Positions 34,497-64,000 of a stretch of 64,000 nt of DNA are shown here, in pieces. Under the pieces are notes generated by a model. It saw only the letters and a list, made by a program, of their open reading frames with translations, did not search any database and was not told where the DNA came from. The stretch is from Turritopsis dohrnii (lineage: Eukaryota > Cnidaria > Hydrozoa > Anthoathecata > Oceaniidae), in NCBI GenBank assembly GCA_027922465.2, contig BQMF02000063.1, positions 1,116,001 to 1,180,000 of the forward strand. The letters run 5' to 3'. How positions within the stretch are numbered: position 1 is the first letter of the stretch; each line of letters begins with the position of its first letter. Made by a program: the position numbers and the translations under genes.

Positions 34497-35302
34497 ATGG
34501 CTTCTTATAGACGTGAAACAGTATTAGGTTTTCAGTTTGAACCAAAACGAAAAAATATAAACAGCGATAATAGAAATAATAGATACGATGTTGACAGTGA
34601 CGAGAGTGTTAACAAACCTACTGTAAAGAAAATAAACAGATTGGATGATTTTTCATGGTGTAAGTGTAACCAATGCAGCATAATGACCGCTTATGGGTTT
34701 TTGGACGAAGCCGAATGTCTTTGTTGTAACGAGCTTCCTGCGGCGAAAACACCTTACTTTAAACTTGAAGGTAATCTATCCACTGTTTATTTTTCTTATT
34801 TATCTTATTTATTATTCTTATTTTTCTTATTTTTTATAAGAATTTACTTTTATGAAATTTTTGTTTTTTAGAAATCAGATGTATCTGCAACCATGATGAC
34901 TTTGAGAGGCTAATATTGAACGAAGGAAATCTATATATATCTCTGGTTAGCATGCATGATAATTATAGCGCACATTTACCGCCAAGAGATAACGTTCCAA
35001 ATAAGTGAGTATTCACAAAGAATGCTGATAAAATCGAAATTACTGTTAATTACTATTTATTTTGCCTTATCTCTAGAACGTATCGGTATGCAGCTTACCG
35101 ACATTTTACATGGTGGGTACATGCAAGGCTTGGAAAGAAAATACGCCGAAGAATCCCAGCATGTGCCTTACGAAACATAAGAGAAAAATTTCCATCCCCT
35201 GACGGTGTTTATGTTGGGTATAAAGAAGGCGCGCAAGTCAGTGACGTCATGGCTTCGTGGGATTACGGTGCAGAGGGAGATGAATTTGAAGATGATGACT
35301 AA
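34497..35302 (+). CDS. Stand-alone P2X7 C-terminal (ballast) domain protein, 3 exons, 210 residues
   Basis: Exons: 34497-34770, 34872-35004, 35077-35302; phases agree. The product resembles the cytoplasmic ballast domain of the P2X7 receptor, which binds zinc through cysteines and a guanine nucleotide. Shared features are WCKCNQCS, ECLCCNELP, the CICNHDDFERLILNE segment, and YRYAAYRHFTWWVHARLG...IPACALRNIREKFPSPDG followed by YVGYKE. No membrane helix or channel domain is present, so it is not an ion channel. The first 50 residues are basic and Asn-rich; the tail is acidic (EGDEFEDDD). It lies wholly inside the TTAA-flanked unit. Its biochemical role is unknown. Confidence 0.8.
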
Positions 35303-42400: not shown

Positions 42401-45400
42401 AGTCATTTTTCATGTTTTTTTCTTTCATTCTTTGTATTTTACAACTTTAAATTTGAATGTTTTGTAAAGGTTTTCACTTTACCATGCTCTTTTCACTGAG
42501 AAATACTTGGTGTTCATTATTTTTTTGCAAGGTGAAGGTCTTTGATTTTTATGTTTTGTTAATCTTGTCAACTTATATTCTATAAAACGTGGAAGAACTG
42601 TTAATATCTCTTTTCTTGTCTTATGGTTTGACACTGAGCATCTTAAGTTGAAATGAGAAATCAAATTAACTTTTATAAACAGAGCTGACCAGATTGTACC
42701 TAAAACGTTAGCAGACAGCTGTTAATGACAAAATACCTTTGATCTATTGTTATTTGTTTTGTTTCTTATACACTTACGTTATTATTAGAGAATTGAAAAA
42801 CAAACCTTTATATGTTTGGTTTTCTCATTGACGAAATTGAAACTGTCATCTGGAAAGTACTGAAAACCTGCTTCCTCAAATGTCTTTGTGTTGTGCGCTA
42901 TGTTTTAATTATGTTTATTGCAAAGTTACGATTTCTACACAATTGATATGTTGAATCATAAGTATTTTCATTCTTTGATCAACATAAACAGAACAATGTT
43001 TTTTCAATTATAAATAGTCGTAGAACACTTGAAATTTGACAGAGAATTAATGTTTTGTAAATTCGTATGTAAATGTTGGTTTACTAGATGTCCAGCGGAA
43101 CTTTAGCCCAATGTCAACACAACTGCTCCCTGTTTTTGTTTTGTGATGGGAGAGGAGGGGGGATTGGTAGGCCACAATCCAGCTTAATACAAGGAGGTAT
43201 CATGATCATGTTAAGTTGATGTCTTGTAAATATGATTGGAGAATGTCACTGTGTTTTTTGAGTTTTGTGGCAGTCCAAATTTGGGGTCCCTTAGTAGGAA
43301 GGAAATGCTAATGAATTGTATCGTTATTTTTATGGTGTTTGGTCCACTTTTTTATTTTCAAAGTAAATATGTTTTTTTGTTTGTTTTTTTTGAAATCGAA
43401 AATATGTTTACTAGTTCGTATTTCAATCGTGTGAATTTTCAATTGGAATGATAATTTTGTTTTACGTAAACCTAATAGATTTGGAAAATATGTTTAGGTG
43501 AAAGGAGCTATGCATCATTCTACAAGTGGAACAAAAACAAATTCCGAGTTAGAAAGTAGCATACTAAACTGGTGCAGACAATGCACTCAGAGGTGGGATT
43601 TTTTTGTTGATCAGTTTGTTTGGGCTCCATTCGCTTTTGTTTGAAATCTTCTAAATTTTTGTAATCTGCGTTTTTCATTGGTCTTCACCTATAACTTTTT
43701 TTTCAGGTATAAAGAAGTAGACATTCGTAACTTTACATCATCCTGGAGGGATGGACTGGCATTTAATGCCATTCTTCATCATCATAGGTGAAATTTCGTA
43801 ATTGGTTCATTATTGCATGGAAGCAACATCCAATGTAATTATATATAAACGTTAATAAGTTAATCAATTAATTTTTAGGCCTGATTTATTTGACTACAAT
43901 AAATTGTTGGGACGACCCCCTAATGCCAACTTGTCTCAGGCATTTGAAAAAGCCAGAACACATTTTGGAATAGCACCTCTTTTGGATCCTGAAGGTAAGG
44001 TAGTTTAAGGTAAATTCGTTCAATATGAAAACTTACTGTTGATTTTGTTGTTATTGAATTTCAGTGTTTTCAAAGTGTGTTGTCTTGACATCTTTTTAGA
44101 TGTGAATATTGACCATCCAGATAAAAAATCGATCATGGTGTATGTCACAACAATGTATGAAGTGCTGTCTAAGCTGAAAGAAACAGAAAGTGATCCTGGG
44201 TCTGAAATCGAACAGGTATGCAAAGCTTGGGAAAAAATTACAAACGTCACTAACATGAAATTAAGACTCAATCAAAAATGTTCTAATATTGAATTTATAA
44301 ACCTTTTGTGGTTTGGTGGTTTGTGAAATATTTACAGTTGAGATGAATTTTAATATGATTTTGAAAAAAAAATTTTTATCAGCATATCACTCAAAATTTT
44401 TGCTGAAGTCCCTTTACAATAGTTTTGACGAAAAGTAAAGTTAAAAAGTCATTCAAGGAACATTTTTTAAATGGTTTCTTTTCCTATTGGTCACATCAGT
44501 GATGTATGATGTTACTTAGGCAGTTACTATATGTCTAGTAGAGTTATTACAGCTTTTTTGTTAAATAATTAAAATGTTTCTTCTTTTGATTACAGCTATA
44601 GATAGCTCTAGGTGTTGTGTGGTATAAAGAGTCGCTTCAATGTGCTATCTATTCCACAATCAAGCAAATAACGATTAATGCAAATCAGTAGAAATAACAA
44701 TTGATTGTGTATGGAAAAAATGATTGTATTCGATTAAATTTTTGACATGTTATAATCTGATCAATGAATGGCATTAAGTTAAAATGTTACGAGTTCTCAA
44801 TGTTGCTTGAATGTATAAGTAATCAAAAGTTATCACTGTTATTATACAAACAACATTTTGTGACGTACAGAATGAGTAAGTTACTTCTTGAGCTTGTACG
44901 GCAAATTTTGTTCCATTATGTGTAACATTGTTTTGTGTTTCTTAAAAATATTAAGTATTTTTATTATTATGAAATTATTATCCTCTAGCGCAGAAAAAAT
45001 CTTGTTGTGTTCAACCTCCTATAAAATAATCCACTTTTTATATAAAATTGATCCAGATTGGATTACGAAACTGATTGGTGCTTAACTTTTTATTTTTTTA
45101 TTATTTGTGATTTTCGATATTTCTTAAAGATTTTCAGAGAAGTTTTTCTGCAGCAAAGACATTAAAACATGGTGTCTTTGACATTCCCTTAGTTTCAAGT
45201 CTCTTTGAGTAATGTCTACGGAAAATAAAAGTAGTTAGTGAGGCAAAGTTCTTTGGTTTTTACGGTGTCAATGGAATGGCCTTTTTCAAAAGATTAAAAC
45301 ATGGTAGAGAATATCTGAACCAGTCTTTCAATTTTACTTTCACCAGTATGCTAACCTGTTAAAAGGTACTTTCAAACAGCCATGTGTTAAACTTCAAAAT

Positions 45401-48400
45401 CATTAAGTGTGAAATAGACACTATAGACAAAACCATACTTTCTAGTTGAACATATTTTTCAGAATCTTCAAGTAAATGTTTGTTGCTATTCTGATAAGTA
45501 GGCATTAAAGAAATAAGTCATTGTGGTTTCTATAATATTTTTTATTGGAATGAATTAACGTTCAAGTGACTTTTTGTTCAATTCAATTTTTAACTTCAAA
45601 AAACAACTTGTGACTCGTAGTTAAAAAAAAACATTCAAGTTTTCTCTTCTCCCAAGAGTTTACAAATAATATTTATGTTATGTTACTACAACTTTTATTA
45701 TAATTTCAAGAACCAATAATACTGTGGCTCACCTTTTCATTGCTTTCCATGGATAGGAATGAAGTAGCTAGGGAGTGCTCTTGGTCCCTAACAGCTTTTT
45801 TTGTTGCTCTTTCCAACCTGGAAGTGTTTTCTATTTTTTTGAAATGGCTTATTATAACTTAAGTTGCCATTCTATAAAAAATATTCAAACTGTGCCAGGC
45901 TATTGTTTAGCAACTTTACATTTCTCATCAAACGCACGACAGGTATAGTTAATTTTTTATTGTCTTTTTGAGGTGTTCTCGCTATTTCTTTGAGTCATTT
46001 CGATCCACTGTTTTAAAAAGTACGCCCAAACAAAATAGTCTCTTATCCCTTTAGAACAACTCTTTCTGAGATTACTTCAGCCCCTTACTCTTTCCCGGTA
46101 ATTTCTGTTGCTAAGTGATTATATAATTGTTCTTCTTCAAATGTTTCCTGAAACCTCAAGGATTTTTTTATCTTTTCTTTTTGTTAAAGTGACTACCTTA
46201 GTGTTTACACAAACAATCAACTTGATCTCTGTTATCAAATATTGATAATTGCAGTGATACTACTGTAAAAAGTGATAGATGATTTTGGAGAAATAAATAC
46301 CAAATCATTCAGAAAATTCTCTAATCCATGTGTTCAGGTTGATTGCTGCAACGAAAACCCATGTTTTTTTCATTTTTAAAAAAATCTCTCTTTATAATAG
46401 ATTAGTGATCCTTGTTGTTATCTGATTGTAAAATTGATTAATTCACAAAATGACATCAATTCATATAAATCATTGTCATGCGGGACTGTTATTATCAACG
46501 GTTTTCGTCACTACAATAGAACTTTTGTGATGTGATGTTGGCAGTAATACATCTCCAGAGTGAGTTTTCTAAAACTTTCTCTTGAAATATTTGAGCATTT
46601 GCATGTTTTTATCGAGTGCTGAGGCATTTATTCATGTACTCTTTTCCACTTTCTTGTTAGTAATGATATGGAAATAATTTTGCTGGAAGTTACCATTGTC
46701 ATCTGTGTAGATTATTTTCACTTCACTGTTGTTATTTGATCACGTTGTTATGAAAAACTATGAAAAATATTCAATGTTATTTGACCATTATTCATCGTCA
46801 CATCATTGTTTTGATTTCTACAAATAAGATGTCGTTTAATTAAATTTATTGTTTAAAAGTGATTTGGTGTGGTTTTCACACGTAATCACATATGGGTACA
46901 CTTGGCCTACATTCGTTTACATTTTCTTGCATGTTTTGGAGATATCATTAATCTGTGTTTATATATTTGTGTTTGTTTTTTTTTTTAGTCACTAGTTTTT
47001 TGAGTTGGTGATCTTTTTATTAAGCCATTACAAATGTCAAACATATGGCTTAGTCTATAGGTTGATATAATGTTAGCTCTTAAAGAATTATGGTAAATGT
47101 AAATATTGACACTGCTTTATTGAGTTTCAAATGTGCTATTGGTCATTACTTGAAAGGATTGTTTACAAATGAATTATGTTCACAAATAGACTTTTCTAGC
47201 TACTAGATAAAGTGGAATATTTTTTTTTTTTTTCATGATATATCTGAATTGCGATTGGAATTCTTTGTGCTTTTCAACTTGTAGCAGATTTTTTAGTGAA
47301 TAGCTTTCTAGTGGAGAAAATAGTTACTGTTGCATCGTTCGGTTTGTTTGTGAAATATTTAAATGAAGAATATTGGCAGTTAAGAAGCCTTTATGTTATG
47401 CTAATACCTTGGCAAGATGGTATGTTTTGTAAATAATTGTCTTTCTGTGTAGCATTTATCTTCTAAAATGTTAAAAAAAATGTGACAATATCTGTTGTCA
47501 CACTTTTTGCCAAATTTCCATTGTTCAAAAACACCTGTGATTGGATTTCTGAATGTAATTTTTCAAATTCTTTTTTTTTTCGTTTTGTACCACTCAATAC
47601 TATCCAAGTACTTTTTGTTTCAATTTGCAACTTCATAAAGTTTTTTTTGTTGTTGTTGTTTATTTTGTGTTTGCAAAAGAAATTTGTTTCGACCAATTTG
47701 ATTTTCAAGTTAATCTTGAAGTGTTGTCACTCGTTCTTCTAGACAAACATGATTTTATTATAGAACACAGTTAAATGAAGGGTGTTGTAGAAAATATCAG
47801 TGGTGGATAAGCAAAAATAAATTATTCAAACATGAATTAAAAGTAAATCATTGGACAGTAATTACAAGCATTTGATCATAAACCTATTTCTGTTAAAGGA
47901 ATAAATCCTATAGACTATGGAAAAAAAATTTAATGCGATGTGCAATCAACTTTATTATAGAGACTAATGAGCAGCTCAAAAAACATTATAATTGTGACTT
48001 CAACGAGAAATGTTTTTTTTTTTTTAAAGATTCTTGTTTTTTGAACTTTTCGCAAAGTTTTCATCTAGAGATATTATTGGATTATAGGCAGTGTAGGCTG
48101 AATTAGTACTTTTACTCCACGCTTTTGTTTTGCTTGAAATAGGCTGCAAGATCAGATAGTCCGACGCCATCATCAGTATCAACAATGTCAGAATGGGATG
48201 ATTATAACGAAACACTGACACAAGTGTCAACATGGTTGCTGCAAGCTGAAACCCAATTGAAGCAGCAAGAACCTGTTTCAGCAAATGTCGACCAAGTTAA
48301 AGAACAATTTCGTGAACATGAAGTGAGAATATTTTTTACCTTGGAGTTTTCTTGTTTATAAACATTTATTTATACTTTTGTTCCTGTTAATCTAAAGACT

Positions 48401-51400
48401 CTACTATAACGGATGTTTATAGTATGTGTTATCGAGTTTAACAATATCTTTCCAAATCATAGAAAGTACGACCACTTTTTTGCTGAAATGTTTACTAGGA
48501 ATTATTAGCAACATCAATTGAAATTTGTTATTTATGGTATCCACTTTTTTTTCCGACTTTTATTATGATTTCTATAAACAACAACCTTGAAGCCATTAAA
48601 ACGTTAAACTTAAAAGATAATAGTTCTTTAATTAAGTAAACTAACCAAGGACAATCAGTTTTAATTACCTTAACATTATCAGACTGACTTCGTTATTAGC
48701 CATTTGCTTTTTAACTGCGGCGAGATTTAAAACATTTGTTTTGTTTCCAATGTGCAATTTGCTGGATAGATTGTGTTGATTCATCAGTTTTGTCACCAAA
48801 ATTATTAAAGTTTGTGCATCTGAGGATCTTACTCCCTGCTGAAAAACTTGAATCATTTCATCTTATTTTTCTGATTGTTGTATACACAAAAAGTTTTAAT
48901 TATCTATAGTTTGAGGTGGTATTAAACCCATGAATGGCTCTTCGTTTTCCTCTAAACATTTAAGTATTGAAGAACAATTTATAACTCTAAATTTCCTTTA
49001 TTTCTACCACATGTTTAATATTGTTTGAAATACTGTGAAGTAGAACTTCCGTTTTTTGGCTAACGTTTCCTCCGATGCAAAATTACACAACAACTTTTGT
49101 AGGAATTCATGATGATTCTAACATCGCACCAAACTAGTGTCGGAAGTGTTTTGGAATTTGGAAGCCAACTGATAAACGAAGGAATAGTGGTAGGCAAAGA
49201 AGAAAAAGATATACGGGAGCAGATGGCTGTATTAAGTGAAAGATGGGAAAACTTGCGTGTATCTGCCATGCATCGGCAGTCAGAGTGAGAATTTTTCTTT
49301 TTTATCTGAACAGATTTTGTTTTGAAGGTAAACTGTTGAGTGATCAAGTATAGGAGACACCAATGTACAATGATTTGCAACACATAATTTGGGATAACCT
49401 TTTTTAAAGATTGCACCAGCACCTGATGAAACTGCAGCAGCAACAGTTGAAAGAGTTAGATGACTGGTTAACTAAAGCCGAATACAAAATGAAAACTGCT
49501 GGTGCGATTGGCTCAGATCTTGATACTGTCAAGAAACAAGTAGAAGAACATAAACATTTTCAAGAAGATCTTGAAAATCAGCAACAGCATGTGAATTCAT
49601 TGAGCCATATGGTTGTTGTTGTTGATGAATCAGAATCTGAAAATGCAACAGCAGATCTTGAAGAACAGCTGGCCTCACTTGGAGAAAGATGGTCAGCAGT
49701 ATGTAAATGGACAGAGCATAGGTATTTATATTATAATATGTTTTCTAATATCTGCAATTGTTTTTTCCAATGTTTTCCAACAATATTGATTTTCCTAATA
49801 TACTAGTACTTTTTTTTTGTACCATTCAAAGTTATTGTTGTGAAACTTTTTGTAAATAATTGTGTAACATTTTTAGATGGGCACATTTGCAAGAAATTCT
49901 AACGAGTTGGCAACAATATCGGGATGAGGAACAGAGGCTGAGTAAATGGCTTCATGAGAAAGAAAGAGCATTGAAAGACATCTCAGTGATTGATATGGGT
50001 GACAAAAATGAAGTTGAAAAACAACTACAAAAGCTGAAAGTTAGTTCTAATTATTTATTTCTATTTTTTTTTCGTAAAGACTTTTTAATTACCCTGTATT
50101 AACTCTATGATTTGTTCAGGATCTTGAGGAAGAGCTGACCCTGCAACAAAACTCATTTGGTGATTTTAATCTGGCTGCTCAGCGAGTTGCACAGACATTA
50201 GAGGAAGACTCACCTGCAATTGCCAGTATACAAGACACTATGGAAGATTTTAATCAACGCTGGAATCTAATTGCCAGCATGTTGAATGCTAAAACAAAAC
50301 ATGTAAGATGTTATTATCATCCTATAATTATTCTTTCATGAACCCTATTTCATTATCTTCCAAATGATTATTTACATTTCTGTTTTAGTTTAAAGGCATG
50401 GAAGATCAGTTGCAAACCTTTCTTCGAGAATTAGAAGAAAATATATCATGGTTGAATGATACAGAAATGTTATTGAAGCCGCAAGCCAATCCTGAGAGAA
50501 AGTTAGTCGAGGTTGGTCAAGATATATTTTTCTTCCATGTTGTTGTCGATGCTTGCTTGACCGTTGCTTAGTGGTTGTTCACTACTACCTATTGTTTTGC
50601 AGAGTCTTGACCAAGCCATGAAAAAAAGACGAACTAGCATAATCGAGTTGACTCGGCAAGGAGAAGAACTATTGAAACAAAGTGCATCCGCTGGCCAGTC
50701 CGTAGCTGGTTTGAAACAATACATTAATAGCTTCAATGATCGCTGGGAATCTGTCACTCACATCTTAGACAATCAAAAGAATGCTTTGAGTTTTTCAGAA
50801 AGGAAGAAAGCTTTTGTAGATGAAACCCAACGAATTCTAATCATGATTACAGAAATCACAACCTACGTGGAGAACATCTTCATTGACATGAAGAACAACC
50901 CCAAGGAAATGTTAATCAAAATTGAGGTAAATAACATTATAACAAAAAATCTCTCTACATGAATGCAGTATTTCGATGTTATTTTTGTTCTCTGTTAAAG
51001 ATAAAGCAAAAAGAATTATCATTGTGTGAAGAGGCATTGGAGAAGTTATGGCTGGACTGTGGCAAAGTCAGTGATCCAGCATTAAAGTCTGCTTTTGAAG
51101 CGGAGTACAAGGATGTCTCCAGTAAAGTCAAGACAGTCGAATCACTGATTCAGGAAAAACACAAGGCAGCAGTAGAAGCTGTTCAAAGTACACCTCCGGC
51201 AGAATTTTCTGACAAAACTAAACTTGTACAAGCAGTTATTGATGAGACCTTTCCATTTGTTAGCAAAGATTTTAAGTACGATGAGATAAAAAATATGACA
51301 GAATTAGCTGATGTTTTGAAGGTATTATAACCCATTGAAATAGAATAATTTTGTTGTCAGGGGATATCAAAAGTCATTACGATGAAGAGCATCTTTTTTG

Positions 51401-54400
51401 AAATAGTGTGTATATTTCTATAGAAATGCACTCCTTTGCAGTAATTTTTCAAGTTTTGCCCAGATAAATTTGAAATTCATAACAGGTTATATTTACTTGA
51501 TTTTAGGAAAAACTTGACAATTTAAATACACATGAAGTCCACCTGAAAACGTTATCAAAACAACAGAAGGAAATGTTGAAAGCCTTATCAACAGATAAAG
51601 CTCAGAAGTATCAAAAGCTTCTGGCTGATCTGACAAGGCAATGGAATAATTGCAAAAAAGTTACTGAAGCACGTTTACAAAGAGTCAATGAAGCAGTGAC
51701 ACAAACGAAGGAATTGGAGGTAGCGATGAGAGAAACTTTTAACTGGATGGATGATGTTGATAAATTCTTGGAGGAGATCACCGGAACAATAGCTGAAGGC
51801 GATGCAGAAACTATTGATTCCCAAGTTCAGGAAGTTGAAGTAAATTATCACTATAATTTTAGCTTGTTTGTTGTTGTTTTTTTGGTTGTTTTTTTTAACA
51901 TTTTATTTTGACTGTTTCTGAATAATTTTTTCAACATACTTCAGATAAAAATGTCTAATGACTAACATCAGTTCAAAACTACTTTACTAGTAGGTAAATG
52001 GCGTTCTACCTTTAAATCATAGGCATTACAAGAAGACATTGCTACTGTACAGAAGAAAGTTGATTCCTTAATAGAAACATGTTCTCTCATTATTGACCGT
52101 GCTCAGCCAAATTATGCTGAAACAATGAAAACGAAATTGACAAGTCTTCAGCAACGTTGGGGTGTTATTATAAGCACGACTGATAAGCAGAAAGAAAATT
52201 TGAAAAATGCTGGACTGAAATTCCAAGAGGTGGATAACGGAGTAAAAGAAATAATCGAGTTCCTAAAAGGGCTTCAGATCACTATACAGAATGATACATT
52301 TAATAAGCTAGATAAAATTACACTGGAAGCAAAGATTCATGAATATGAGGTTTTTTTCCTTAATATCATAATATATATAATTTTGACGTCAGTTAACAAG
52401 TCTTTTTATTATCTTGTGTTAATGTTTTAACTACAGGACATGGAGAAGACAGTTACTTCAAAAGGAAACACCATCACTGAATTCACAAATATCGTCACTC
52501 ATCTAATTTCAACGGCACCTAGTGATATGGAAACTCCACCAGTTTATAAGGAATTACAATCATCCAGCAGCATGGTTTCATCTGTTTCACTTTCAATCAA
52601 GTAAGTCTGTAAACAAGGGTTTCCTTTTGGTTGAAGTGTTTAGCTTTCTGACAGTTCAGTTATTTGTTCCTTGTTGACATGAACCATGATTATGATGTAA
52701 TTTCAGTGGCATTCTTCAAAGATTGAAAACAGCTCAGAAGCAGTTTGACGAATTCGAAGGACTAATCCGAAAAACGTATCATGCAATGGAACTATTGGAT
52801 GCTGCAATCTCTAAATCATCTGAGAAGTTAGATGGAGATGATGAGGAATTAAAAAATTGTTTGGGAGTAAGTGTATAACCCACTTTATGCTGATGTCAAC
52901 GACACGACTTTTTTGCTATGGCTTCCATTCAAATATTTTTAGGTCCTCGATGAATTGCTAAGAAAGTTTTCTGGTGAAGACGTCAAGCAGATTGATGAGT
53001 TAGGGAACTTGTTGATATCAAGTGATGTTTGTGTTACCAAAACTAAAGACATGATTGGTGAATACAAGGCCAGGTTAGATGACACAAAAGAACGCTGCAA
53101 AAAGGTATTATGCTATGTCTTCTAAACAGTGATCTGATTGGGAATGGACAATTGATCCTACTCTTCTCAAAATCTGTACACTATAAGCTATAACAAAAGC
53201 TACTCAATTCATATTTGTTTCCTTTTATATTCTTTTGTAACCATAGAAACACATAGGCTTCAGTTAAATAATTGTTTGACTTTTTAGATTTTCATCGATA
53301 TACTTTGTTTCATCTGATAATCCTTCCACCATTGCATTTCCACTTTGCCTACCATTTTTATATGCTGTTTTTAGGTGCAATATATTCTTGAAGGAGAGTT
53401 AATGAAAAGACAACAGTTAAGAAAAGATCTGGTTCAGATCGGTGAATGGCTAGACAGGATGGAAAAAGACACGTCTGATAAAATTAAAGAGAATGCTGAT
53501 ATATCAGATGAATACATTGATGTAAGGATATTTTCCTTGTTTACTATCGTGTAGGTTTGGTGCAGTTGAATTCAAAAGTTGTCAGGACAAAGAATTTCAT
53601 GAATACCTGGTTTAATTATGAAAGATGAGTTTGTGAGATTGTCTAGATGTTAAGGTAGCAACATGCTTAGAGAAAGTGTTTGTATTCTGCATCATTCTAT
53701 GTGATTCAACCATAATGTAGTTGTACTATCTAATCACAATCAAATAATTTAATCACTGCAAAGGAGTGCATTTCTATAGAAATATACATACTTTTTCAAT
53801 AAAAATGGTCTTCATCGCAGTGAATTAATTTGTTTATTTTAGAATTTAAAGGAGGAAATTTCTTTGAATGAAGCATTGGTATCTTCTGCAGAACGTTCAG
53901 TAAAAGAATTGATTAACACAGGACGACCAGAAAACCACAAAGATTTAATAAGCAAACTTGAAGGTATTCAGTCACGCTGGGGTGGTTTACTGAAAGCATA
54001 TGAAGTGGTCAAATCAAAACCAAAACAAAAAGAGTTAGAAAACAAATTCTTTGCGTTAGAAGGCAGTATACTTTCTGATATTGATAACCTAAGAAGAAAA
54101 ATCAAAAAGGTGAAGATGACGTCACCAGAGGTGTTGGACATCCAACAGGCCGTTGAAACGTTGGAGGTATGGATCAATATTAAAGGGATTTCAGTCTTAT
54201 TATTCGTAACCACGATTTTCCTCATGCAGTTTAATTATATCGCTAATTATGATCATGAATTTGCCTGGGGCTTTCTGAAATGGAATTCCATAGTATTGAT
54301 GAAATATTTATGCAGAAAGACCAAACTGTAGCATACAAAAAATTTTACATGTATTTCCATCTATAAATTTCAATGGACAATTATGTATATTGATATGCTT

Positions 54401-57400
54401 TCATTTTTTCAGGATTTGTCCAAAAGTAGCGATTCTGTTCATGTTGACATTCAAACCTTGACGCAATATGCAGAAAGTCTGACGAAGAAAGATAGCAGTA
54501 AAATTGACCAGCAAATAAAAGAAATTCAAAATGAGTACAACGGTGTAAAAGACTTACTTAAAAGTAAAGAAAAGGTAATGTTCTCTATTAGGTTAACTTT
54601 CATGATCAATGGTTATACATACATGATTCCATAAACAATAATAATAGGCTTTGGTGTTTGAGTATTTGCCATAAAAGGTGTATACAACGGCTTCAATTTT
54701 CAGGTACTCGCTGATGCATTGCCTTTGTCCGAAAGTGTATTCGCTAATCTTGAAACGTTTGATAACTGGCTCAAAGTGGTTAACGAAAATTTGCAAAATA
54801 TATCTGTGAAACCATTACCAGCTACCCCAGAGGAGAGTATCATTAAAGTTGATGTATGTCTACTTTAATTCGACTTTTATATTTTTTGATATTTAATATT
54901 TTATTTTGTATGTAAAAGTAAACTGTTGAAACTTGTATTTTGCCAATTTTTTTTTTTTTTAACAATAGATATTGTTTTGGAAGTTTCTTTATAAAAGGTA
55001 TTTTTTCAAACTTTAGAATATTTTGAAAGAGATTACTGAAAAGGCTGTTGATATTCAGCAACTCTGCAGTAATGCTGGGAACTTGGGGCAAATGTCTGAA
55101 GAGCCAGCATTTCAAGCTATGGAGACAAGAGTTCATGATATTCGAGAAGTGTATGGAGAAATCAAACGAGATGCGCAAGATAGGAAAGATACATTCCAGA
55201 GTTGGCGTAAACAATTGGACGAATATGAGAAAAAGGTTGATGACCTTAATGCATGGATAGATAGCAGATTCAGCACCTTGGAATCTATTGGTGGTTTGTC
55301 AGCTCGCTTAGATGTGGAAATGGAACTCGATAAGCTTAAGGTATTATTGTTAGATCAATTAATTTTGATTTCATGTGTATTACTAGTTATATCGTAATCA
55401 TATTGGTTTTATAGAAACTCATTTTTCTGATCAACTCAAAAGAGTCAGAGTTAGACAATTTGAAGAACCTTGGTGACGACATTGCTATGAAAGGTCATCA
55501 GAGTATAGTTGACCCATACGAAAAGCAAGTATACCAACGATGGGATGAGCTGGAGAAAAAATACAAAAGTGTTCAGTCATTACTGGAAATGAAGTTGAAA
55601 GAAGTTTCATATCAACCCCCCAAAAAGACAGCAAAAATAATTTCCGAAGAAGAGGTGCAATATTTTTGTTTTGACTCAATGATAGAATTCTTAATCGCCT
55701 ACAGGGTATTTGGTTTTATTGAATAGTGACTTTTTGTGATTAGGTTATTGTTGATGAGCCTATAAACATCTTGGAAGTTGAATCAGCACCACCAAGTTTC
55801 TTGGATAGCTCCGATATTGATATTGTGCCACAGGTTGCAGCACCGGTTGAGTCTACTCCAATAATATCAACGAGAGCACCCACAAAAAAATATAAAAGAG
55901 AAACAAAAGGTATTGTTAAATCTTGCCTATATATAGCTTAGTGCCTGTCAACTTATTATTGAAAACAACTAAACTTGTACTACCTGAAACAGCTTTAAAG
56001 ATGCTGAAAGTTGGCTTTTGAATTTTCAAAAAATCATTTTTTGTTCTTGAGATATTGGTGTTTAAAGGTTTTATCCAAAGCATGATCTCCATGGCAACAT
56101 GATATCACAACGTTCAAGAAGATATTGCTGACATACAAATATGTGAATAACTCAGAATGTTTTAATGATAATTGTTAGAACATTGCATGTAGGGTGGTGA
56201 ATAACTGCAGTTGTGAAAATAGCAAAGAAGTTTATGGCCATTGCTACTTTGGCTTGGTTCCAGGTCTCTATTATTTTTTGCTGACAAAGCCATATATCAA
56301 CATCCAACACTGTCACTATGGCAAATTTTGCTTTAACTTACGTCCAGTGAAAACTGTTCCATTTTCTAAAGTTTCGTTTCCCTTACGTGAGCAGATCTCC
56401 ATTTATTAGTTTGTCAGCAAAAAACAGGGGAGACCTGGAAACAAGCCAGGGTAACTAAGGCAATAAGTATTTTTAGTGATTCGATACCTATAGGTGTTTG
56501 CCACTACACACCAAATTCTAGAAGTGTATCACTAATATTTCTTCAGTTATTTACATATTTGTATGTCAGCAATTTCTTTTTGAACATTGTGATGTCACGT
56601 TGCCATGGAGATCAAGTTTTGAGGAGAAACTTTAAATGGCAATATCTCGGGAACGAAAAATGATTTTTTGAAAATTCAAAAACTGTCTTTCATCATTTTT
56701 AAAATTCTTCCAAATGGTACAAAAAAATCAATTTTGATTTTTTTTAGTTTAGTTTCCCTTTAACTGTACCGACTCATTCTTATGATCTTTATTTGTAAAA
56801 TACTCAAAAGAAACACTCATAATTAAATTTGATTAAACACCCCCTTAAAATTGTTTTCCTATAAAGAATGATTCTAGGGATAGCTATTTCTCTAAAATAT
56901 CATTTCAAACTATTTGTAAGAATAAACATAATTATCCTTTTCTTTTTTCTGTAGAATAAATAATTTAGTTTGATTTAAAATTGAAATGAATTACGAAATT
57001 CTGAATGAATATATATGTAAAATGAATAGTGTTCAGTTTTGTTCACTCTAGTAACTCTACACATTCAGAGACGAAACTGACAAAACTGCTTCAGCTTATG
57101 ATCTATCTAGTTTTATCTTTCGTGTAACATGGATAACCTTGTAAATTACGTTCTTTATAGTGAACCCAATAATGAAGGTTGTAGAACTAGCAGTATTTCA
57201 TTTTCTGTTCTTACCTAATGTGTTTATGCTAACAAATTTGTTTTCGCTTCATTGCAGCCAGTTTACAACAGAGTGTTGAAGATATGATTTTGGAAATTGA
57301 GGCTATTGAAGCGTCCTTGCCGAACTTGAGAACTGACAGTGAAAACGGACTGAAAACTATTCAAACTAACGTCGAGGTGAAGATTTTTTTCTGCACGTGG

Positions 57401-60400
57401 AGCTAGTTTTGAATTTCTGTGCAATCCTTCATTGTGAATTCTTGTTCTATAGAAAATTGAAGATCATTTAGGAGAACTTCAACCTGATTTTGAAAACATT
57501 ATTGAAGAAGCAAAAGATACATTGCAAGAACTCAATAATAATGATTCCAACCGAGAGCCGATATTGAGGCTTTCCAAAAAGTTTAGTGATGTTCATGCTG
57601 ATCTAATGATCAGAAGGCAAAGTTTACAAGATGCAGATTTCAAATTTTCGCACATGAAAAGCTATCTCTCCGATTGTCAGATGTGGTTGGCAGGAGCTGA
57701 GAAATTACTACAATCAGAGAAACAACTTGAAAATCTGAAGGTATGCTGATAACACAGGTTCCAAATTTCTTTTCTTTGTTATTCTGGTGTTCATTATTTT
57801 CTCTTATTTCTAAAGGAAATCGAGACAAGTATTGAGCAATATTCTGCTCGATTGGAATCAGTTAATATTCGTGCTGAGCAGTTAGTGGATGTCTGCTCAG
57901 AAACCTTGATTCCTAAGAAACAAATTGCCCTAGTCAATAAACGATTTCATATGGTAGCTCACCATTTTGAAAAGTATCAACAACCTGAAGAGAAAGGTAA
58001 CATTTTTGTTATTATTTTTACTTCTTTTAATCAAACTTCAGGTACATGATGAGATCAAAATAAAAATATTTTTTCATTATATTTAGTTTTAATTCACTAT
58101 ACACTTGTTTTAGTTACATCATATCGAGTCAGTGTTGAAACAGGTGATCGACCTGATGCTGAAACAAAGGCGAATGTATACATAAAACTATTTGGTGAAT
58201 ATGGCAACAGTGACCAGTTGCAACTTCGTCAATCCGAGACTAAAAGAAAAAAGTTCCAATCTGGACAGGTTGATTTGTTTACATTCAGGAATCAACCATG
58301 GTTAGGAAAGCTTTCGAAAATTCGTGTTTGGCATGATAACGAAGGTTTGAATCCTGCATGGTTTTTAGCGAGTATTTATGTGTTAGATGAATTATCTGGT
58401 CGTTTGTTTTGCTTTGTGATTGATACTTGGCTTAGTAAAGAGAATGGAGCAGTTTTGAAAGAAATGCCGGTTAGTGCAGTCGCACTAAGCCAAGAAGCTT
58501 GTAAGTTGCCACATCTATTGAAAGCTTTTTGTTATTATTTCTTGACTCAATTATGGAAAGACTTGTTTTTTACTAAATTTAAATTCAATTTCAATTCAAT
58601 TTTCTTTTCAGCACCGGACATCATGGTGAAGCGACACATGATAAGTGATGTACATTGGCTTTTTGACACATTTAGTTCACAGCCTAGTGAACCTGATTTA
58701 AAACCACGTGAGGAGCTTATAGAAGACATCAAGAAAGAAATTCGAACGATCGAAGAGATTGAAAATAGATTGAACCATCCTTGTTTCACTGGAAAACCTT
58801 TTGATGATTTCAGTCGACAAGAGGAAATACTCCAGGTAAACAAGACAGTTTTTTTGATGTTTTTTCAGGACCGAATTTTTCTGAGCTTATCGTTTTTTTA
58901 AAAATTTTGGTGATTGGTTGTTGGCATATTCTATTTCGATAACAAAAACACACACATGGTATAAACTGATTTAGCTTTGCTTTAAGTACATTTATCTCAC
59001 ACATTGGCAATATTTCAACTTAAGATTATCTGATGAGATTATGATCTTTCCTTGTGCTTTCTAACAACCATGTTTTTGGTCCATCATTGCTTTGACCTGT
59101 AATGCCGAAGTGAAAAAAACCATGTGTCTAACAATAAAACACTTATTTTTATTATTTTCTTTATACATTTTTTTTTTAAGTTGTCACTTTGTTGCTAACT
59201 TGAAATTCCTATTCTCTATGCATGTAATACTTCTTTGAGTTATATAAGAAAAAGGTTAATTCACATTTTTGCTTTATAAAATCTCCTTTTGAAATAGTAG
59301 CATGTACTTAAAGAGAAAATCCTTGTATGGTGTTATTATAAATTGATTAAGATACATAATTCATTTTTATGAGACAGTGTTTTTAATCTCTTCTGGAGGA
59401 AAGAAAGTAAAAGGAGTTCTGTTCTCCATCCATTGGTTTGAATACACAGTTAGTTAGAATGAAAGATTGAGTAAAATGTAAAGGGAAATTTAGTATTGAA
59501 CTATGCACTGGTTACCTGGCTGCCACGTGTTTTCAAACACTTTAAACGAGACTAGATTAAGAAGTCATGTCTTTGTTGTTGTAGAAGGAATTGCTTGTGT
59601 TGATTTCTTTCTTTATAAAATTTTCTTTCCCCATGCTTGTTTTTAAGTAAATTCCAGTGCCATATACCAATGAAGATTATCAATCGTATCTCAGAGATAA
59701 GAACAATGTAATTAACGACATTGTCATTGATAACATAGTTGGAGAATTAGTTTTATTAATTTAAATAAATTTTATAGATTATGTTTTCCTTGAAAAACGA
59801 AACTTAAAAAAAAACTCTCCCTATATTGTAAGTATTAAAAAAATGTGAAAAATCCATTTCAATGTTAGTAGCAGGTCTTTCTTTCCATGATTTTGATAAG
59901 TTTTTTGTTTTTAGGATGTCGAGGCACAAATCACAAAAACTAATCATGCTGTTACACATTTCATGATGATACGAGAAAGATATTTGGCAGAATGCACTCA
60001 GGAGGAAATGTACGATATTGATGTCAATCTAACTGGGATGCGTTCTAGGTGGAATGCAGTCAACAAAGAGTTTAAAAGTCGTTATGTTGCTTATGAGCGA
60101 AATGTGGAATTGTGGAAGCAGTTTCATGACGATCTTAATACTCTCACACTCTTTCTCTCTGGTGTCGAGAACCAACTCTCAAATAATGAACTGTCAGAAA
60201 CGGAAATTAAGGTAAAATATTGTTTGCCATAAAAACAGTTGTGATCCATTGGAAGACTTAACTCATTTGCAGCTACAGCGAAAATCATCTTTCATGATCA
60301 TTCAATATTTTTTATTTTTCCTGAAAGCTTATCAAAGTTAGATAATTGTTTTTATGACACCCTTTTACAAGCTCTGTGCATAGGGGTAGTGATTAGGTAT

Positions 60401-63400
60401 GTGAAGTGGTTAGGTCAGATTGAAAAGAAAATAAACTTCTTCCTTATGGCACCGTATTATAGCGGTTATCACTCTTGGAATTCATGTGAGAGGTTGGGGT
60501 TCAGTTCCCCTTGGCGGCGATTCACCATGCGCAAGTGAATGTACCATAGCGCTGGGTCGATTCATGCCATGTGAGGGAAATTGGGTAGATTATACATCGG
60601 AAGTTGCAGGAGGTCATCCAGGAGAGCACGGGCCCTTGGTTGGGTTCGTGTCACTCATGAGAGTGTTAAATACTTCGGAGCCTCCAACCTAAGCCGTGGC
60701 CCCATCTGGAAAACAGATGCAACAGCAACTGAGTGTGACCATCCACGTAAAATAATACCTAATAAATAATAAATAAACTTCCTCAGATAATCTGATCTTT
60801 ACTTTGAACAGTAGTCTTTCTATTTATAACCGCAACATGATCATTTCTCAGTGAAGCTATATCAAAGATGTTACAGATTAAATCATTAGTTCTGCTGCTT
60901 AACTGGATAATGCTATTTCTGATTTGAATCAAACTAGCTTGTACGTGATTCTATGAAAGAGTCATGATGTTCTTGCAACGAAATGTCATTAAAATGCTTT
61001 GGTAAAAAGTGTAATACTGTGATACTGTTATTAGTAAAAAACTCACCATTGATAACATAGGAGCCAACTCTACCAGATAGCTATATTAGTTAACATTAGT
61101 GTATTAGTTTCTCTAGAAGAGCAAGGTTAACAGATACTTATTTGGTTTTTTCGTTTCAATAGGAAATACAAAATGAGATTTATCTGCATCAAGAAAGATT
61201 GAATGGATTAAATCGAATTGCGAGTGACATTATCCTACAGTCATCAGAGAACAATGGAAAGGAACTGCAAAATAAGTTAGATACAGTGAATAGTAAATGG
61301 AACAAAATCACTGGTGAAATCACTAACCGTAAAATGAAGTAAGTCCCCTTAAACATTTTTTTGAGGAAAATCACTCATTGTTTATTATAATAAAAAAATA
61401 TACACGCTTTTCTTTTTATAAGAATGGTGTTTTTTCGTTTCATGACGAATATTCTTAACTTTTTAGTCAAGATCATCCTAATATATTCTTAAGACATTTT
61501 TAAGGCCGTACCTAACTTTTCGTTCCCAGTAACAAAAGATAAAACTCAAAAGGCATAAAAGGGTAAAACATAGCACCTGCAGCAATGGAGAGCCACATGA
61601 GAGAATGTTTGCATTGATAATTACAAAAAGATAGCACGTACATATAAAACAAAATGAATAAAATTTATTCTTAAGACATTCTTAACTTTTTGGCCAATTT
61701 CATCTTGAACATCCTTATAAAGTGTATTCTTATAAAAACAAAAGCCTGTATTAGAACCAAGTCCCAATTCCATGTACACCTTGCACATAGTTGAAATTTC
61801 AAGGAAGGCATTTGAAGCATTTTAAGAAATGAATTGCTATTAAACCAATCTGTTCTTTTATATTAATCTGTTATAGAAAGCACTGCAAAAAAAAAAAAGC
61901 ATTATAAGTAAAATGTAAGATATCCTGCTGAAAAAATCAAATCTCCAACTGAATGTTTGTAAACATAAATATGTTATTAACAAAAAGGAATCCTTTTTAA
62001 GGGGATTTTGAGTTTAACATATTGGTCTTGTAAACGTTTTTGAGAATGCTTCATAGTTTATCACTTTACTCAAGATAGAGGAAATGCCTGCCACAAATGT
62101 CTATGTGTCATCAACTATATTCTATAAGAAACCTCGTATAACTATCCATGCAAACAGAGCAAAAGGAAGGTTTGTTATTAGATCAATTAAAACCACTTTT
62201 TATTAGCTTTAATTAAACTGAAATTTCAGGTTCTAATTAATATTTTCCACTTATGATAATATGAAATGACTTTTTTACTGGAAGCTATATATACACAGTT
62301 GTGTTTTGTTTTTTTTTATTAAACGTTCAGATGAAATAAATTCAGTATATATAATATATATGATAAATTAGAAGACCTATTATAAGATCACTTTTGTATG
62401 ATTTCAGGGACTTGATAGATGACCATGAAATCAAGAAGTTTATGAATGGTTGCAGTGCACTTCAACAAGCTTTGGATAAGTTGCGCACTACTTTATCGTA
62501 CCAGAAACCACATCCGATCGATGCAGAAGAACTAAGAAATTGTCTTGGTGAACTGCAGGTACCAAGTTGTTCAGAACATGAAAAATATTTGTATATATTG
62601 ATGAGGGAGGAAGGAAAGGAAACTTTATCTTATTCTTTCAATTGAAATGGAAACAGTTTTTCTGTTTTTTCAGTGAATTTTTTATATCATTATTTTACTT
62701 CAGAACTACGATGACGAAGTGTCTGAGTTACAGAAGACAATGCATAATCTAAACAATGATGCCAAGAAGATACTTTCTCGGTCAGACCTTTCTCCAACAC
62801 AACTCGATGAAATCAAGTCACGGTCAAATTCCCTTGATAAGTACTATCAGGAAATAACTCTTAGTTTTGGTAATACACAATTTAACGAGTACTTTATGAA
62901 TAGTAAGATGGTTGATTTACAAAGCATTTTACTTTTTTTTTGCTATTCTCCACTTTACAGAAAACCAAAAATCTTCCCTTCATGATAAAATCTCCCGTGC
63001 TGTTAAGTTTCTGGATGAGTTGGCAGAGTTATCAGCTTGGATGTCTAGGACAAGAACTCTCCTTGAGGGAAACAACGAAGGGAGACCTGGGTGCCAGGTG
63101 GATCCAGAGGTTTGTGAGTTTTCAAAGCAAAGAAGCATTTCTTTTAAATCGATATTTTGAATTATAGAGTAAAACAGGAGAGTAATTATGTACTGGCTGT
63201 TAACAGATAAAACTAGCTTATGTAGTTAAAACTCTATTAGGTGAAACTAGCTTTCTTTGACTCTTCCCGCAAGATAAGGGATTTTTTTCATTCTTGTTTA
63301 ATATTAGATGATTAAATCATCGCTGGAAACAAGAAAAAGTAATGTTGAATCTATCAACAAATTACTGAAGGAGTTCAAAGCTGAAGGCGAGTTAACTAGT

Positions 63401-64000
63401 GGACAATTTCCTCAAGATGTTGGAGAGAAGATTGCTCGGTTAAATACTGATTGGCAAGTGATTATACGATTAGCAGTTGCCTTGAAAGACAGACCTATCA
63501 GTGAAGAAATGGTGGTTGCTGAAGCAATGCAACAAGCTGAATCATCAGTTCCTATATTCGAGAACGGTGAGGATTATTGATGAAGTAGTACAAGTCAGTT
63601 GCTTACTTGTACGATTCAGATGTTATTTAAATCTCCTTGTGTGTGTTTTTTTTTTACCTTAGATACAACGGACAGTGCATCTTCAACTAATACATTGGAT
63701 AAGAATTCGGCTCAGCTCCACGATTGGTTAAAACTGGTGGAAAATAAATTGAAAGGCCTGTCTGTTGTTGTTGGAGATGATGAAGACATGGAATCAACTC
63801 TAAAAAAATTAGCTGTAAGATTCAATCATTCATCTTTCGAGTCGATAAAGTTTGTTTTGTTTGCTTTCATTTCACCAATTTTTTTTTTAAAAATTTTTTT
63901 GTTTTTAGATTATTCAAGTTGATTTGGAAAATCGAAAGAATGACTTGGAAGATGTTATTGAAATGGCGGCTGCCATGAACATGGAATCAACTGATGAGAG
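36432..64000 (+). CDS. DMD: Dystrophin, 5' part (actin-binding CH domains and rod), with embedded PLAT domain; runs off the right edge
   Basis: Dystrophin links cortical actin to the dystroglycan complex. The window holds two alternative first coding exons and 41 shared exons, about 2,800 codons for the long form. In order: N-terminus, CH1 and CH2 (long-form residues about 192-437), spectrin-like repeats from about 450, a Pro/Val-rich hinge-like exon (about 1865-1919), more repeats, a PLAT domain (about 2116-2244), and further repeats to the edge. The opening [15 protein letters not shown] and the rod segment [12 protein letters not shown]...[13 protein letters not shown] match vertebrate dystrophin and utrophin closely. 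All 41 junctions agree in phase. The WW, EF-hand, ZZ and coiled-coil C-terminus should lie beyond 64000. Utrophin versus dystrophin cannot be separated outside vertebrates, where one gene is usual. Confidence 0.93.
36466..39482. other. Dystrophin first intron and likely second promoter region
   Basis: AT-rich sequence between the two alternative first coding exons. The promoter of the long-form exon should lie in its last part, since an in-frame TAA precedes the ATG at 39483. No repeat or other gene was recognised. Confidence 0.5.
39483..40056 (+). CDS. DMD: Dystrophin alternative first coding exon, long form (191 residues)
   Basis: An open frame of 191 codons plus one base starts at ATG 39483 and ends at a strong donor (CGTAAGTC), phase 1. 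It joins 40268 to give [13 protein letters not shown]. The product is rich in Ser, Lys and Asn, with [18 protein letters not shown] near the start and [19 protein letters not shown] in the middle, and has no hydrophobic segment. No family was recognised. Codon structure and the exact fit of the donor phase support it as real coding sequence. Confidence 0.7.
40268..44215 (+). CDS. DMD: Dystrophin exons for the paired CH (actin-binding) domains
   Basis: Exons: 40268-40329, 40513-40608, 40708-40785, 41411-41503, 43498-43592, 43707-43787, 43879-43994, 44100-44215. CH1 runs from [11 protein letters not shown] through [20 protein letters not shown] and [12 protein letters not shown] to [16 protein letters not shown]2 runs from [20 protein letters not shown] through [20 protein letters not shown] and [20 protein letters not shown] to [17 protein letters not shown]. 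These are the conserved actin-binding signatures of the dystrophin/utrophin group. Confidence 0.95.
44216..48142. other. Large dystrophin intron
   Basis: A 3.9-kb intron between the CH2 and first rod exons, by far the longest inside the shared part. It is AT-rich. No exon, repeat family or gene was recognised. Its size leaves room for an internal promoter, but no ATG exon with a matching phase-0 donor was found. Confidence 0.5.
48143..55654 (+). CDS. DMD: Dystrophin rod exons, first block of spectrin-like repeats
   Basis: Exons: 48143-48322, 49103-49284, 49410-49721, 49877-50039, 50120-50302, 50389-50511, 50603-50926, 51001-51321, 51507-51839, 52023-52349, 52437-52600, 52707-52866, 52943-53104, 53375-53521, 53843-54166, 54413-54574, 54704-54853, 55017-55340, 55415-55654. 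Several are near 324 bases, one spectrin repeat long, and most junctions are phase 0. Conserved Trp positions (for example [43 protein letters not shown]) mark helix A and C of successive repeats. The first three repeats align best with vertebrate R1-R3. Confidence 0.92.
51357..51463 (+). mobile_element. 118-bp foldback MITE, copy 7
   Basis: Internal arms TACGATGAAGAGCAT and ATGCACTCCTTTGCAGTAA are clear; the termini are mutated. It lies in the dystrophin intron between exons 51001-51321 and 51507-51839. Confidence 0.75.
53751..53825 (-). mobile_element. 118-bp foldback MITE, copy 8, core only
   Basis: Holds the core TCACTGCAAAGGAGTGCATT facing AATGGTCTTCATCGCAGTGA in reverse orientation. 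Both outer ends are missing. It lies in a dystrophin intron, ending just before the acceptor of exon 53843-54166. Confidence 0.75.
55744..55909 (+). CDS. DMD: Dystrophin hinge-like exon
   Basis: This exon encodes about 55 residues rich in Pro, Val, Ser and Ile ([39 protein letters not shown]) and ends in a basic KKYKRETK. It lacks the Trp and heptad pattern of the rod. It ends in phase 1, unlike the phase-0 rod exons before it. By analogy with the Pro-rich hinges of vertebrate dystrophin it probably breaks the rod; its equivalence to a particular vertebrate hinge was not established. Confidence 0.75.
55965..56750. mobile_element. Long nested palindrome (foldback element) in a dystrophin intron
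   Basis: The arms at about 55965-56160 and 56540-56750 are inverted copies over about 200 bases, sharing for example TTTGAATTTTCAAAAAATCA, GATCTCCATGGCAAC and TTGCTGACATACAAATATGT. Inside, a second inverted pair (about 56252-56300 and 56405-56452) shares TTTTTTGCTGACAAA and CCAGGTCTC. It has no coding capacity. It lies between exons 55744-55909 and 57258-57376. Confidence 0.8.
57258..57996 (+). CDS. DMD: Dystrophin rod exons directly before the PLAT exon
   Basis: Exons: 57258-57376, 57453-57740 and 57816-57996. They continue spectrin-like helical sequence after the hinge-like exon, for example [20 protein letters not shown] and [19 protein letters not shown]. The last one ends in phase 1 after YQQPEEK, the junction at which the PLAT exon is attached. 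Confidence 0.88.
58114..58500 (+). CDS. DMD: PLAT domain exon embedded in the dystrophin rod
   Basis: One 387-bp exon, 129 codons, with phase 1 at both ends. Upstream it joins exon 57816-57996 (AAA G + TT) and downstream exon 58612-58835 (T + CA), so the rod frame is kept on both sides. The product is a whole PLAT (LH2) domain: [80 protein letters not shown] and a closing [13 protein letters not shown] domains are beta-sandwich modules found in lipoxygenases, lipases, polycystins and RAB6-interacting proteins, where they bind membranes or proteins. Its partner here is unknown. The symmetric exon carrying one complete domain suggests exon shuffling. Confidence 0.93.
58612..64000 (+). CDS. DMD: Dystrophin rod exons after the PLAT exon, cut by the right edge
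   Basis: Exons: 58612-58835, 59915-60211, 61163-61338, 62408-62558, 62704-62869, 62961-63109, 63308-63566, 63663-63814 and 63909 onward. They return to spectrin-like helices, for example [26 protein letters not shown] and [12 protein letters not shown] with the expected Trp residues. The last exon is still open at 64000. Confidence 0.88.
60445..60778 (+). mobile_element. tRNA-derived SINE, plus strand
   Basis: The head reads like a tRNA gene: TATAGCGGTTATCAC as box A and GGGGTTCAGTTCCCC as box B, about 40 bases apart. A non-tRNA body of about 250 bases follows, ending in an AATAAATAATAAATAAA tail. It lies in the dystrophin intron between exons 59915-60211 and 61163-61338. The higher GC content sets it apart from the intron. 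Confidence 0.75.

What the first reader, a model, noticed from the sequence alone, without database searches (positions are those of the whole stretch)
58114..58500. A complete PLAT domain built into the spectrin rod of dystrophin
Seen: a single 387-bp exon encodes a full PLAT domain. Its phase 1-1 boundaries splice in frame to spectrin-repeat exons on both sides. Established: vertebrate dystrophin and utrophin have CH, spectrin, WW, EF-hand and ZZ parts and no PLAT; PLAT domains commonly bind membranes or partner proteins. Inference: an exon-shuffling event gave this lineage a dystrophin with an extra membrane- or protein-binding module in mid-rod. It would be a second anchor point along the rod, and I know of no description of it.
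Basis: partly seen in the sequence, partly recalled or inferred. Interest (0 to 1): 0.92.

Follow-up and report, generated by a model that had tools for sequence, protein, structure and literature searches.

The report
PLAT domain inside cnidarian dystrophin rod
The muscle-membrane linker protein dystrophin of jellyfish, hydroids, sea anemones and corals carries a conserved extra domain of a membrane- and partner-binding type in the middle of its rod, where human dystrophin has only a short linker of unclear role.

Summary
Confirmed and extended. Exon 58114-58500 encodes a full PLAT/LH2 domain (PF01477, E 8.4e-21; AlphaFold pLDDT 90; lipoxygenase-PLAT fold). It splices in frame (phase 1-1) between spectrin-repeat exons of a genuine dystrophin gene: CH pieces, R1 matching solved dystrophin/utrophin, and downstream DNA co-linear with the WW/EF/ZZ end of Hydractinia dystrophin. 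Assembly size and contig number match Turritopsis dohrnii. It is not one species' quirk: ten dystrophin records have the PLAT in the same slot (Hydractinia, Hydra twice, Rhopilema, Nematostella, Dendronephthya, Acropora, three unnamed contigs that look like cDNA). In the one animal-wide listing, 9 of 120 rows have a PLAT; the other 111 show none (best 3.3 bits), and the named ones among them are bilaterian. The slot is the R15/R16 linker of vertebrate dystrophin, beside the R16-17 syntrophin/nNOS site. In three medusozoans the PLAT is the best-conserved block of the modelled rod beyond R3. Searches of the held papers found no description. Most likely it is a mid-rod anchor to lipid or a membrane partner, fixed before the cnidarian classes split. 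Ligand, donor gene and gain-versus-loss are open.

The parts
58114..58500 (+). PLAT exon, 387 bp, phase 1-1, 129 aa
57816..57996 (+). exon before the PLAT: end of the spectrin repeat that aligns with vertebrate R15
58501..58611 (+). intron after the PLAT exon, 111 bp, without an in-frame stop
58612..58835 (+). exon after the PLAT: about 30-aa linker, then start of the repeat that aligns with vertebrate R16
55744..55909 (+). proline-containing hinge-like exon about 200 aa before the PLAT
57258..57740 (+). two rod exons (57258-57376, 57453-57740) between the hinge-like exon and the PLAT neighbourhood
59915..60211 (+). rod exon after the PLAT neighbourhood
40267..44215 (+). N-terminal CH (actin-binding) region: tblastn pieces 40267-40350, 40528-40812, 41414-41506, 43534-43788, 43877-44215 (some span introns; exact exon ends only for 43879-43994 and 44100-44215)
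48143..49721 (+). exons of R1 and R2 (48143-48322, 49103-49284, 49410-49721), the part that identifies dystrophin/utrophin
49877..64000 (+). rest of the spectrin rod inside the window; the gene goes on to about 82552 in window numbering (adjoining genome DNA). The splice model misses at least two rod exons near 52433-52600 and 52720-52869

Best explanation
Shown: a single-exon PLAT domain lies between the spectrin repeats equivalent to R15 and R16 of a full-length dystrophin gene here, and a PLAT lies in the same slot of dystrophin records from hydrozoans, a scyphozoan, hexacorals and an octocoral. Shown: it is more conserved than the blocks beside it in all six relatives compared, so it is under constraint of its own. 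Inferred: it works as a mid-rod anchor. The rod already holds actin at its CH end and dystroglycan at its WW/EF/ZZ end; the PLAT, tethered closely to R15 and by a flexible ~30-residue linker to R16, docks the middle of the rod onto the plasma membrane (inner-leaflet lipid) or onto a membrane partner, probably without calcium. It was fixed before the living cnidarian classes split.
Against: No binding, localisation or RNA data from this species. PLATs can also serve protein binding (recalled; a Rab6-R6IP1 complex is among the fold matches). Net charge of the PLAT is -3 to +3 in 9 sequences, so there is no obvious basic lipid-binding face. The KRKK cluster of the medusozoans is missing in the anthozoans. 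Against anthozoans the PLAT is not exceptional within the rod: 14-19% of 118-aa windows do as well. The relative placing of PLAT and repeats is not resolved (pTM 0.36). PLAT-skipping isoforms cannot be excluded.
Confidence: 0.55

Rival explanations
1. The PLAT is a protein-docking module rather than a membrane binder: it recruits a signalling or adaptor partner to mid-rod, the role that R16-17 (syntrophin, nNOS) play at the same place in vertebrates.
For: It sits at the R15/R16 junction, next to the SR16-17 syntrophin/nNOS site (PMC6403485 passages). Near-neutral net charge and loss of the AGTD-type acidic residue do not suggest classical Ca2+/lipid binding.
Against: No partner is known; the closest fold matches are lipoxygenase PLATs, a type linked to membranes (passages). 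Polycystin-1 also has T, not D, at that position, yet a phosphatidylserine pocket is ascribed to its PLAT (passage).
Confidence: 0.3
2. The PLAT was present in the common ancestor of Cnidaria and Bilateria and was lost in Bilateria, leaving the short R15/R16 linker.
For: The nine bilaterian rows aligned have a linker at exactly this spot, with 4 to 32 aligned residues in the PLAT slot; cnidarians keep a similar stretch after the PLAT.
Against: No recognisable PLAT remnant in the nine aligned linkers or in 111 listed PLAT-less proteins (best 3.3 bits); one gain in the cnidarian stem is equally parsimonious; no placozoan sequence was examined, and the longest sponge dystrophin is reported to begin at SR20 (PMC10293626, passage).
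Confidence: 0.25
3. A passive spacer: a tolerated insertion at a domain boundary without a binding role.
For: It lies at a repeat boundary where an insert costs little; skipping it keeps the frame.
Against: It is more conserved than the blocks beside it in all six relatives compared and is kept in ten records.
Confidence: 0.07
4. Gene-model artefact: the PLAT exon belongs to another gene or is never spliced in.
For: No RNA reads from this species were available (no call could test it).
Against: Independent protein records and 12-13 kb contigs filled with coding sequence carry it in the same slot; phases match on both sides.
Confidence: 0.02

Closest known systems
Vertebrate and other bilaterian dystrophin/utrophin
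   Same: CH pair, spectrin rod, WW, EF-hands, ZZ; R1 clearly homologous to solved structures; linker at R15/R16
   Different: No PLAT in the 111 other rows listed; only a short linker in the nine aligned
LOXHD1 (tandem PLAT protein of hair-cell stereocilia)
   Same: Its repeat that ends 264-294 residues before the C-terminus (repeat 15 of 17 in four numbered proteins) is the best match of the dystrophin-PLAT profile in 35 of 36 LOXHD1-type proteins (97-136 bits)
   Different: A chain of some 17 PLATs and no spectrin repeats; repeat 15 is split by an intron in this genome and keeps the AGTD Asp
Polycystin-1 family PLAT
   Same: Best sequence match among solved structures
   Different: Part of a membrane-spanning receptor/channel protein; lower profile score (65 and 79 bits in two proteins)
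Animal lipoxygenase PLAT (coral 8R/11R-LOX, 5-LOX, 15-LOX-2)
   Different: N-terminal to an enzyme; some are Ca2+-dependent (PMC7436259 passages); coral 8R-LOX keeps the AGTD Asp that the dystrophin PLATs lack

Membership tests
Dystrophin/utrophin | N-terminal pair of CH domains | tested here: met
   tblastn of an anthozoan-type dystrophin N-terminus and of Hydractinia gives ordered pieces 40267-44215; the CH2 end matches utrophin and dystrophin structures. CH1 of this species was not scanned with Pfam
Dystrophin/utrophin | Dystrophin-type first spectrin repeat | tested here: met
   utrophin and dystrophin R1 structures, E 4.7e-32 to 1.3e-27
Dystrophin/utrophin | C-terminal WW, EF-hands, ZZ in the same gene | tested here: met
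   Hydractinia residues up to 3627 map in order to 82552; EF-hand_3 hit at G000:C63:1196556; WW, EF and ZZ found by Pfam in the Hydractinia protein. WW and ZZ of this species were not scanned on their own
Dystrophin/utrophin | Binds actin and dystroglycan | not testable with these tools
   -
PLAT/LH2 domain | Profile match over the curated cut-off, near full length | tested here: met
   75.3 bits against 23, profile 1-107 of 117
PLAT/LH2 domain | C2-like beta sandwich | tested here: met
PLAT/LH2 domain | Lipid or membrane binding | not testable with these tools
Ca2+-dependent PLAT | Acidic residue at the AGTD position (ligand role recalled) | tested here: not met
   K, R or Q in all 11 dystrophin PLATs seen (9, 2 more); D in 4 of 4 LOXHD1 repeat-15 rows and in coral 8R-LOX. 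Other ligand positions were not tested
LOXHD1-derived PLAT | Clade with LOXHD1 repeat 15 | tested here: inconclusive
   dystrophin PLATs group together (SH-aLRT 93); joining them to LOX15 (p-AU 0.766) or to polycystins (0.681) is not rejected

The most novel reading that the evidence does not exclude
The 20-residue R15/R16 linker of human dystrophin, next to the syntrophin/nNOS site, marks the place of an ancient third anchor: eumetazoan dystrophin had a PLAT there, cnidarians keep it, and bilaterians lost it and moved mid-rod docking onto R16-17 and its partners.
Probability: 0.2. Interest if true: 0.85.

Novelty: new variant of a known kind. Interest (0 to 1): 0.72.

Why it matters
Dystrophin is among the most studied proteins in medicine, and a 2023 review of its evolution (passages read) says that the human arrangement is already found in cnidarians. 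These records show that cnidarian dystrophins have an extra conserved domain in mid-rod, at a spot where human dystrophin has a 20-residue linker beside its syntrophin/nNOS site. Nematostella, Hydra and Hydractinia are laboratory animals, so a mid-rod anchor can be tested directly, and with it the question whether the middle of the rod needs its own attachment.

Tried and rejected
Artefact or separate gene: rejected. Other spectrin-rod proteins (plakins, nesprin, spectrin): R1 and the C-terminus settle dystrophin; single rod exons alone gave only weak Spectrin or Spectrin_SYNE1 scores below cut-off, and the two exons next to the PLAT gave neither. Polycystin as the obvious donor (best in the PDB search): weakened once LOXHD1 sequences were compared, since no LOXHD1 chain was among the listed PDB matches; the donor stays open. 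LOXHD1 repeat 15 as a shuffled exon: it is split by an intron in this genome (C30 and C240). Basic-patch lipid binding: no net positive charge. Recalled, not from a call: human DMD intron 41 falls at codon 1974/1975, close to the mammalian slot 1975-1978, but is phase 0 while the flanks here are phase 1, so a simple insertion into that intron is not supported. My gene model missed two rod exons and the CH1 exons; first chose the acceptor 58087; one exon end (62869) was set by hand. The Hydractinia record lacks CH1 and the Rhopilema record lacks both CH domains. PLAT-skipping isoforms cannot be excluded, since the protein records are clustered at 90%. Placozoan and sponge dystrophins could not be reached: one search lists only 120 of 1859 hits, and its 2444 scored candidates are themselves a selection. 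dN/dS was not possible without relatives' DNA. A search of the whole genome with the PLAT peptide did not complete. PADLOC, PHROGs, NCBIfam, Rfam and the phage, plasmid and E. coli collections were not used. The paper on the coral 11R-LOX structure is not held.

Full report

Which gene. A script that chains exons by codon usage and splice sites gives 33 coding exons from 43879 to 64000 (one end set by hand). The piece from CH2 to R2 matches dystrophin (9c3c, 2.7e-46) and the R1 structures of utrophin and dystrophin. The Hydractinia 'utrophin-like' protein P0028 maps in order along one strand from 43534 to 82552, the last 18.5 kb lying in adjoining genome DNA; an anthozoan-type N-terminus places further CH pieces from 40267. 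A genome search for EF-hand_3 matches two loci, this one and one on C53, so there is one dystrophin plus probably a dystrobrevin (inference). The model misses at least two rod exons near 52433-52600 and 52720-52869, which does not touch the finding.

Which animal. The genome is 435,911,712 bases in 891 contigs. Turritopsis dohrnii TUR_r2.0.1 is reported as 435,923,997 bases in 891 sequences (PMC9835754, passages). That is very probably the source; it is a hydrozoan.

Not a quirk. A search with the PLAT and its flanks gave 33 hits, four of them dystrophin/utrophin-like records with PF01477: Hydractinia symbiolongicarpus (71% over the region), Hydra vulgaris twice (63, 61%) and Rhopilema esculentum (48%); the other 29 are LOXHD1-type or polycystin-type by domain list. 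A search with the C-terminal region of the Rhopilema protein scored 2444 candidates and gave 1859 hits, of which 120 were listed: 9 have PF01477, namely those four, Nematostella vectensis, Dendronephthya gigantea and three unnamed 'lgn' contigs. The other 111 have none; the named ones among them are bilaterian (lancelet, acorn worm, starfish, vertebrates, tick, centipede, oysters), some are unnamed. As a control I ran a profile of the dystrophin PLATs on all 120: the same 9 hit, and the best of the other 111 scores 3.3 bits. A third search, from the first unnamed record, added Acropora cervicornis 'Dystrophin'. Octocorallia and Scyphozoa are confirmed by taxonomy look-up; the placing of the other named genera is recalled. 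The three unnamed contigs are 12,248, 12,534 and 13,233 bases long and encode 3,855, 3,877 and 3,898 aa, so coding fills 88-94% of them; with some 42 kb and over 30 introns in the gene here, that points to cDNA (inference), so the PLAT is in spliced messages of those animals.

Where it sits. In an alignment of 18 dystrophins the PLAT of all nine cnidarian-type rows falls between the end of the repeat equal to vertebrate R15 (FAQFRRL in a mammal, FEKYQQP here) and the stretch before R16 (STYLTEI in the mammal). Hydra P0030 and Acropora P0160, added later, have it in the same slot. The nine bilaterian rows have 4 to 32 aligned residues there. In human dystrophin a 20-residue linker between R15 and R16 is recognised, adjoining the SR16-17 syntrophin/nNOS site; the same paper concludes that this linker does not work well as a hinge (PMC6403485, passages). 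The R15-PLAT-R16 model (a P0028 piece, six sequences) shows helices, the PLAT strands 157-281, a linker 284-313 under pLDDT 50 and helices again; mean pLDDT 74.9, pTM 0.36, so the relative placing of the parts is unknown.

Constraint. Against Hydractinia, Hydra and Rhopilema the PLAT is 81, 78 and 70% identical, the block before it 66, 58, 34% and the block after 60, 40, 26%; no other block of the modelled rod beyond R3 (to the window's end) reaches these values. Against three anthozoan-type proteins it is 40, 37, 47%, with 24, 17, 21% before and 33, 23, 30% after. Of all 118-residue windows of the modelled protein, 14, 6.5 and 6.4% do as well in the three medusozoans and 19, 18, 14% in the others; the maxima lie in R1-R3.

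Source of the domain. A profile of the dystrophin PLATs scores highest on the repeat that ends 264-294 residues before the C-terminus in 35 of 36 LOXHD1-type proteins, at 97-136 bits; this is repeat 15 of 17 in the four that I numbered. Two polycystin-type proteins score 79 and 65. A tree of 101 PLATs groups the ten dystrophin PLATs in it (SH-aLRT 93) and leaves their neighbour open; holding them with LOXHD1-15 or with polycystins is not rejected (p-AU 0.766 and 0.681). Repeat 15 sits on short branches, which may alone explain its score. In this genome LOXHD1-15 and two polycystin-type PLATs on C29 appear split by introns, unlike the dystrophin exon. That exon is the only 1-1 exon among 31 modelled internal exons, the classical mark of a shuffled module (recalled).

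How it may work. PLAT domains of lipoxygenases are linked to membrane association, some with Ca2+ (PMC7436259, passages), and a phosphatidylserine pocket is ascribed to the polycystin-1 PLAT (PMC11918491, passages). In all 11 dystrophin PLATs seen, the acidic residue of the AGTD motif is K, R or Q, while four LOXHD1-15 rows and coral 8R-LOX keep D; polycystin-1 has T. That this Asp binds Ca2+ is recalled. I therefore favour a Ca2+-independent mid-rod anchor to lipid or to a membrane partner. Shown: domain, place, conservation, spread. Inferred: binding, anchoring. Not shown: ligand.

Literature. 'dystrophin' with 'PLAT domain' is held by two papers, the one listed being on dog genomes; 'dystrophin', 'PLAT' and 'cnidarian' as whole words are together in none; the listings show no title or abstract start that points to it. 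In the 2023 review 'plat' occurs 0 times. The 2015 dystroglycan-evolution paper (passages) has 'plat' only as the start of other words. Only open-licence PMC text was searched. The combination does exist as automatic domain annotation in protein databases.

Noticed in passing
G000:C30 (L015-L017) and G000:C240 (L018-L020): Two LOXHD1-like genes with matching order of PLAT repeats, either paralogues or leftover alleles.
   Followed up: partly
G000:C29, L024 and L025: Two polycystin-1-type genes some 56 kb apart (GPS-like motif, PLAT, membrane spans by eye); among the stretches fetched, their PLATs are the closest to the dystrophin PLAT, 42 and 37% identical.
   Followed up: partly
window 16003-17438: Remains of a retrotransposon with reverse transcriptase (PF00078 at 16003-16413), LINE-like.
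   Followed up: no
window 22261-23994: Long single-exon frame of DENN/Avl9 type (PF09794 over, PF02141 just under cut-off), like DENND6 (recalled).
   Followed up: no
window 11053-11892, minus strand: Ras-like small GTPase frame (PF00071), resembling the ciliary RSG1/CPLANE2 (recalled).
   Followed up: no
window 3423-3782, minus strand: Tandem peptide repeat around SSHTTTLLAIFLLHDKG in an open frame, perhaps a translated minisatellite.
   Followed up: no
window 34494-34871: Frame with a weak match to the P2RX7 intracellular domain (PF20478, E 0.001, below its cut-off).
   Followed up: no
window 58501-58611: 111-bp intron after the PLAT exon without an in-frame stop, so its retention would add 37 residues in frame.
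   Followed up: partly
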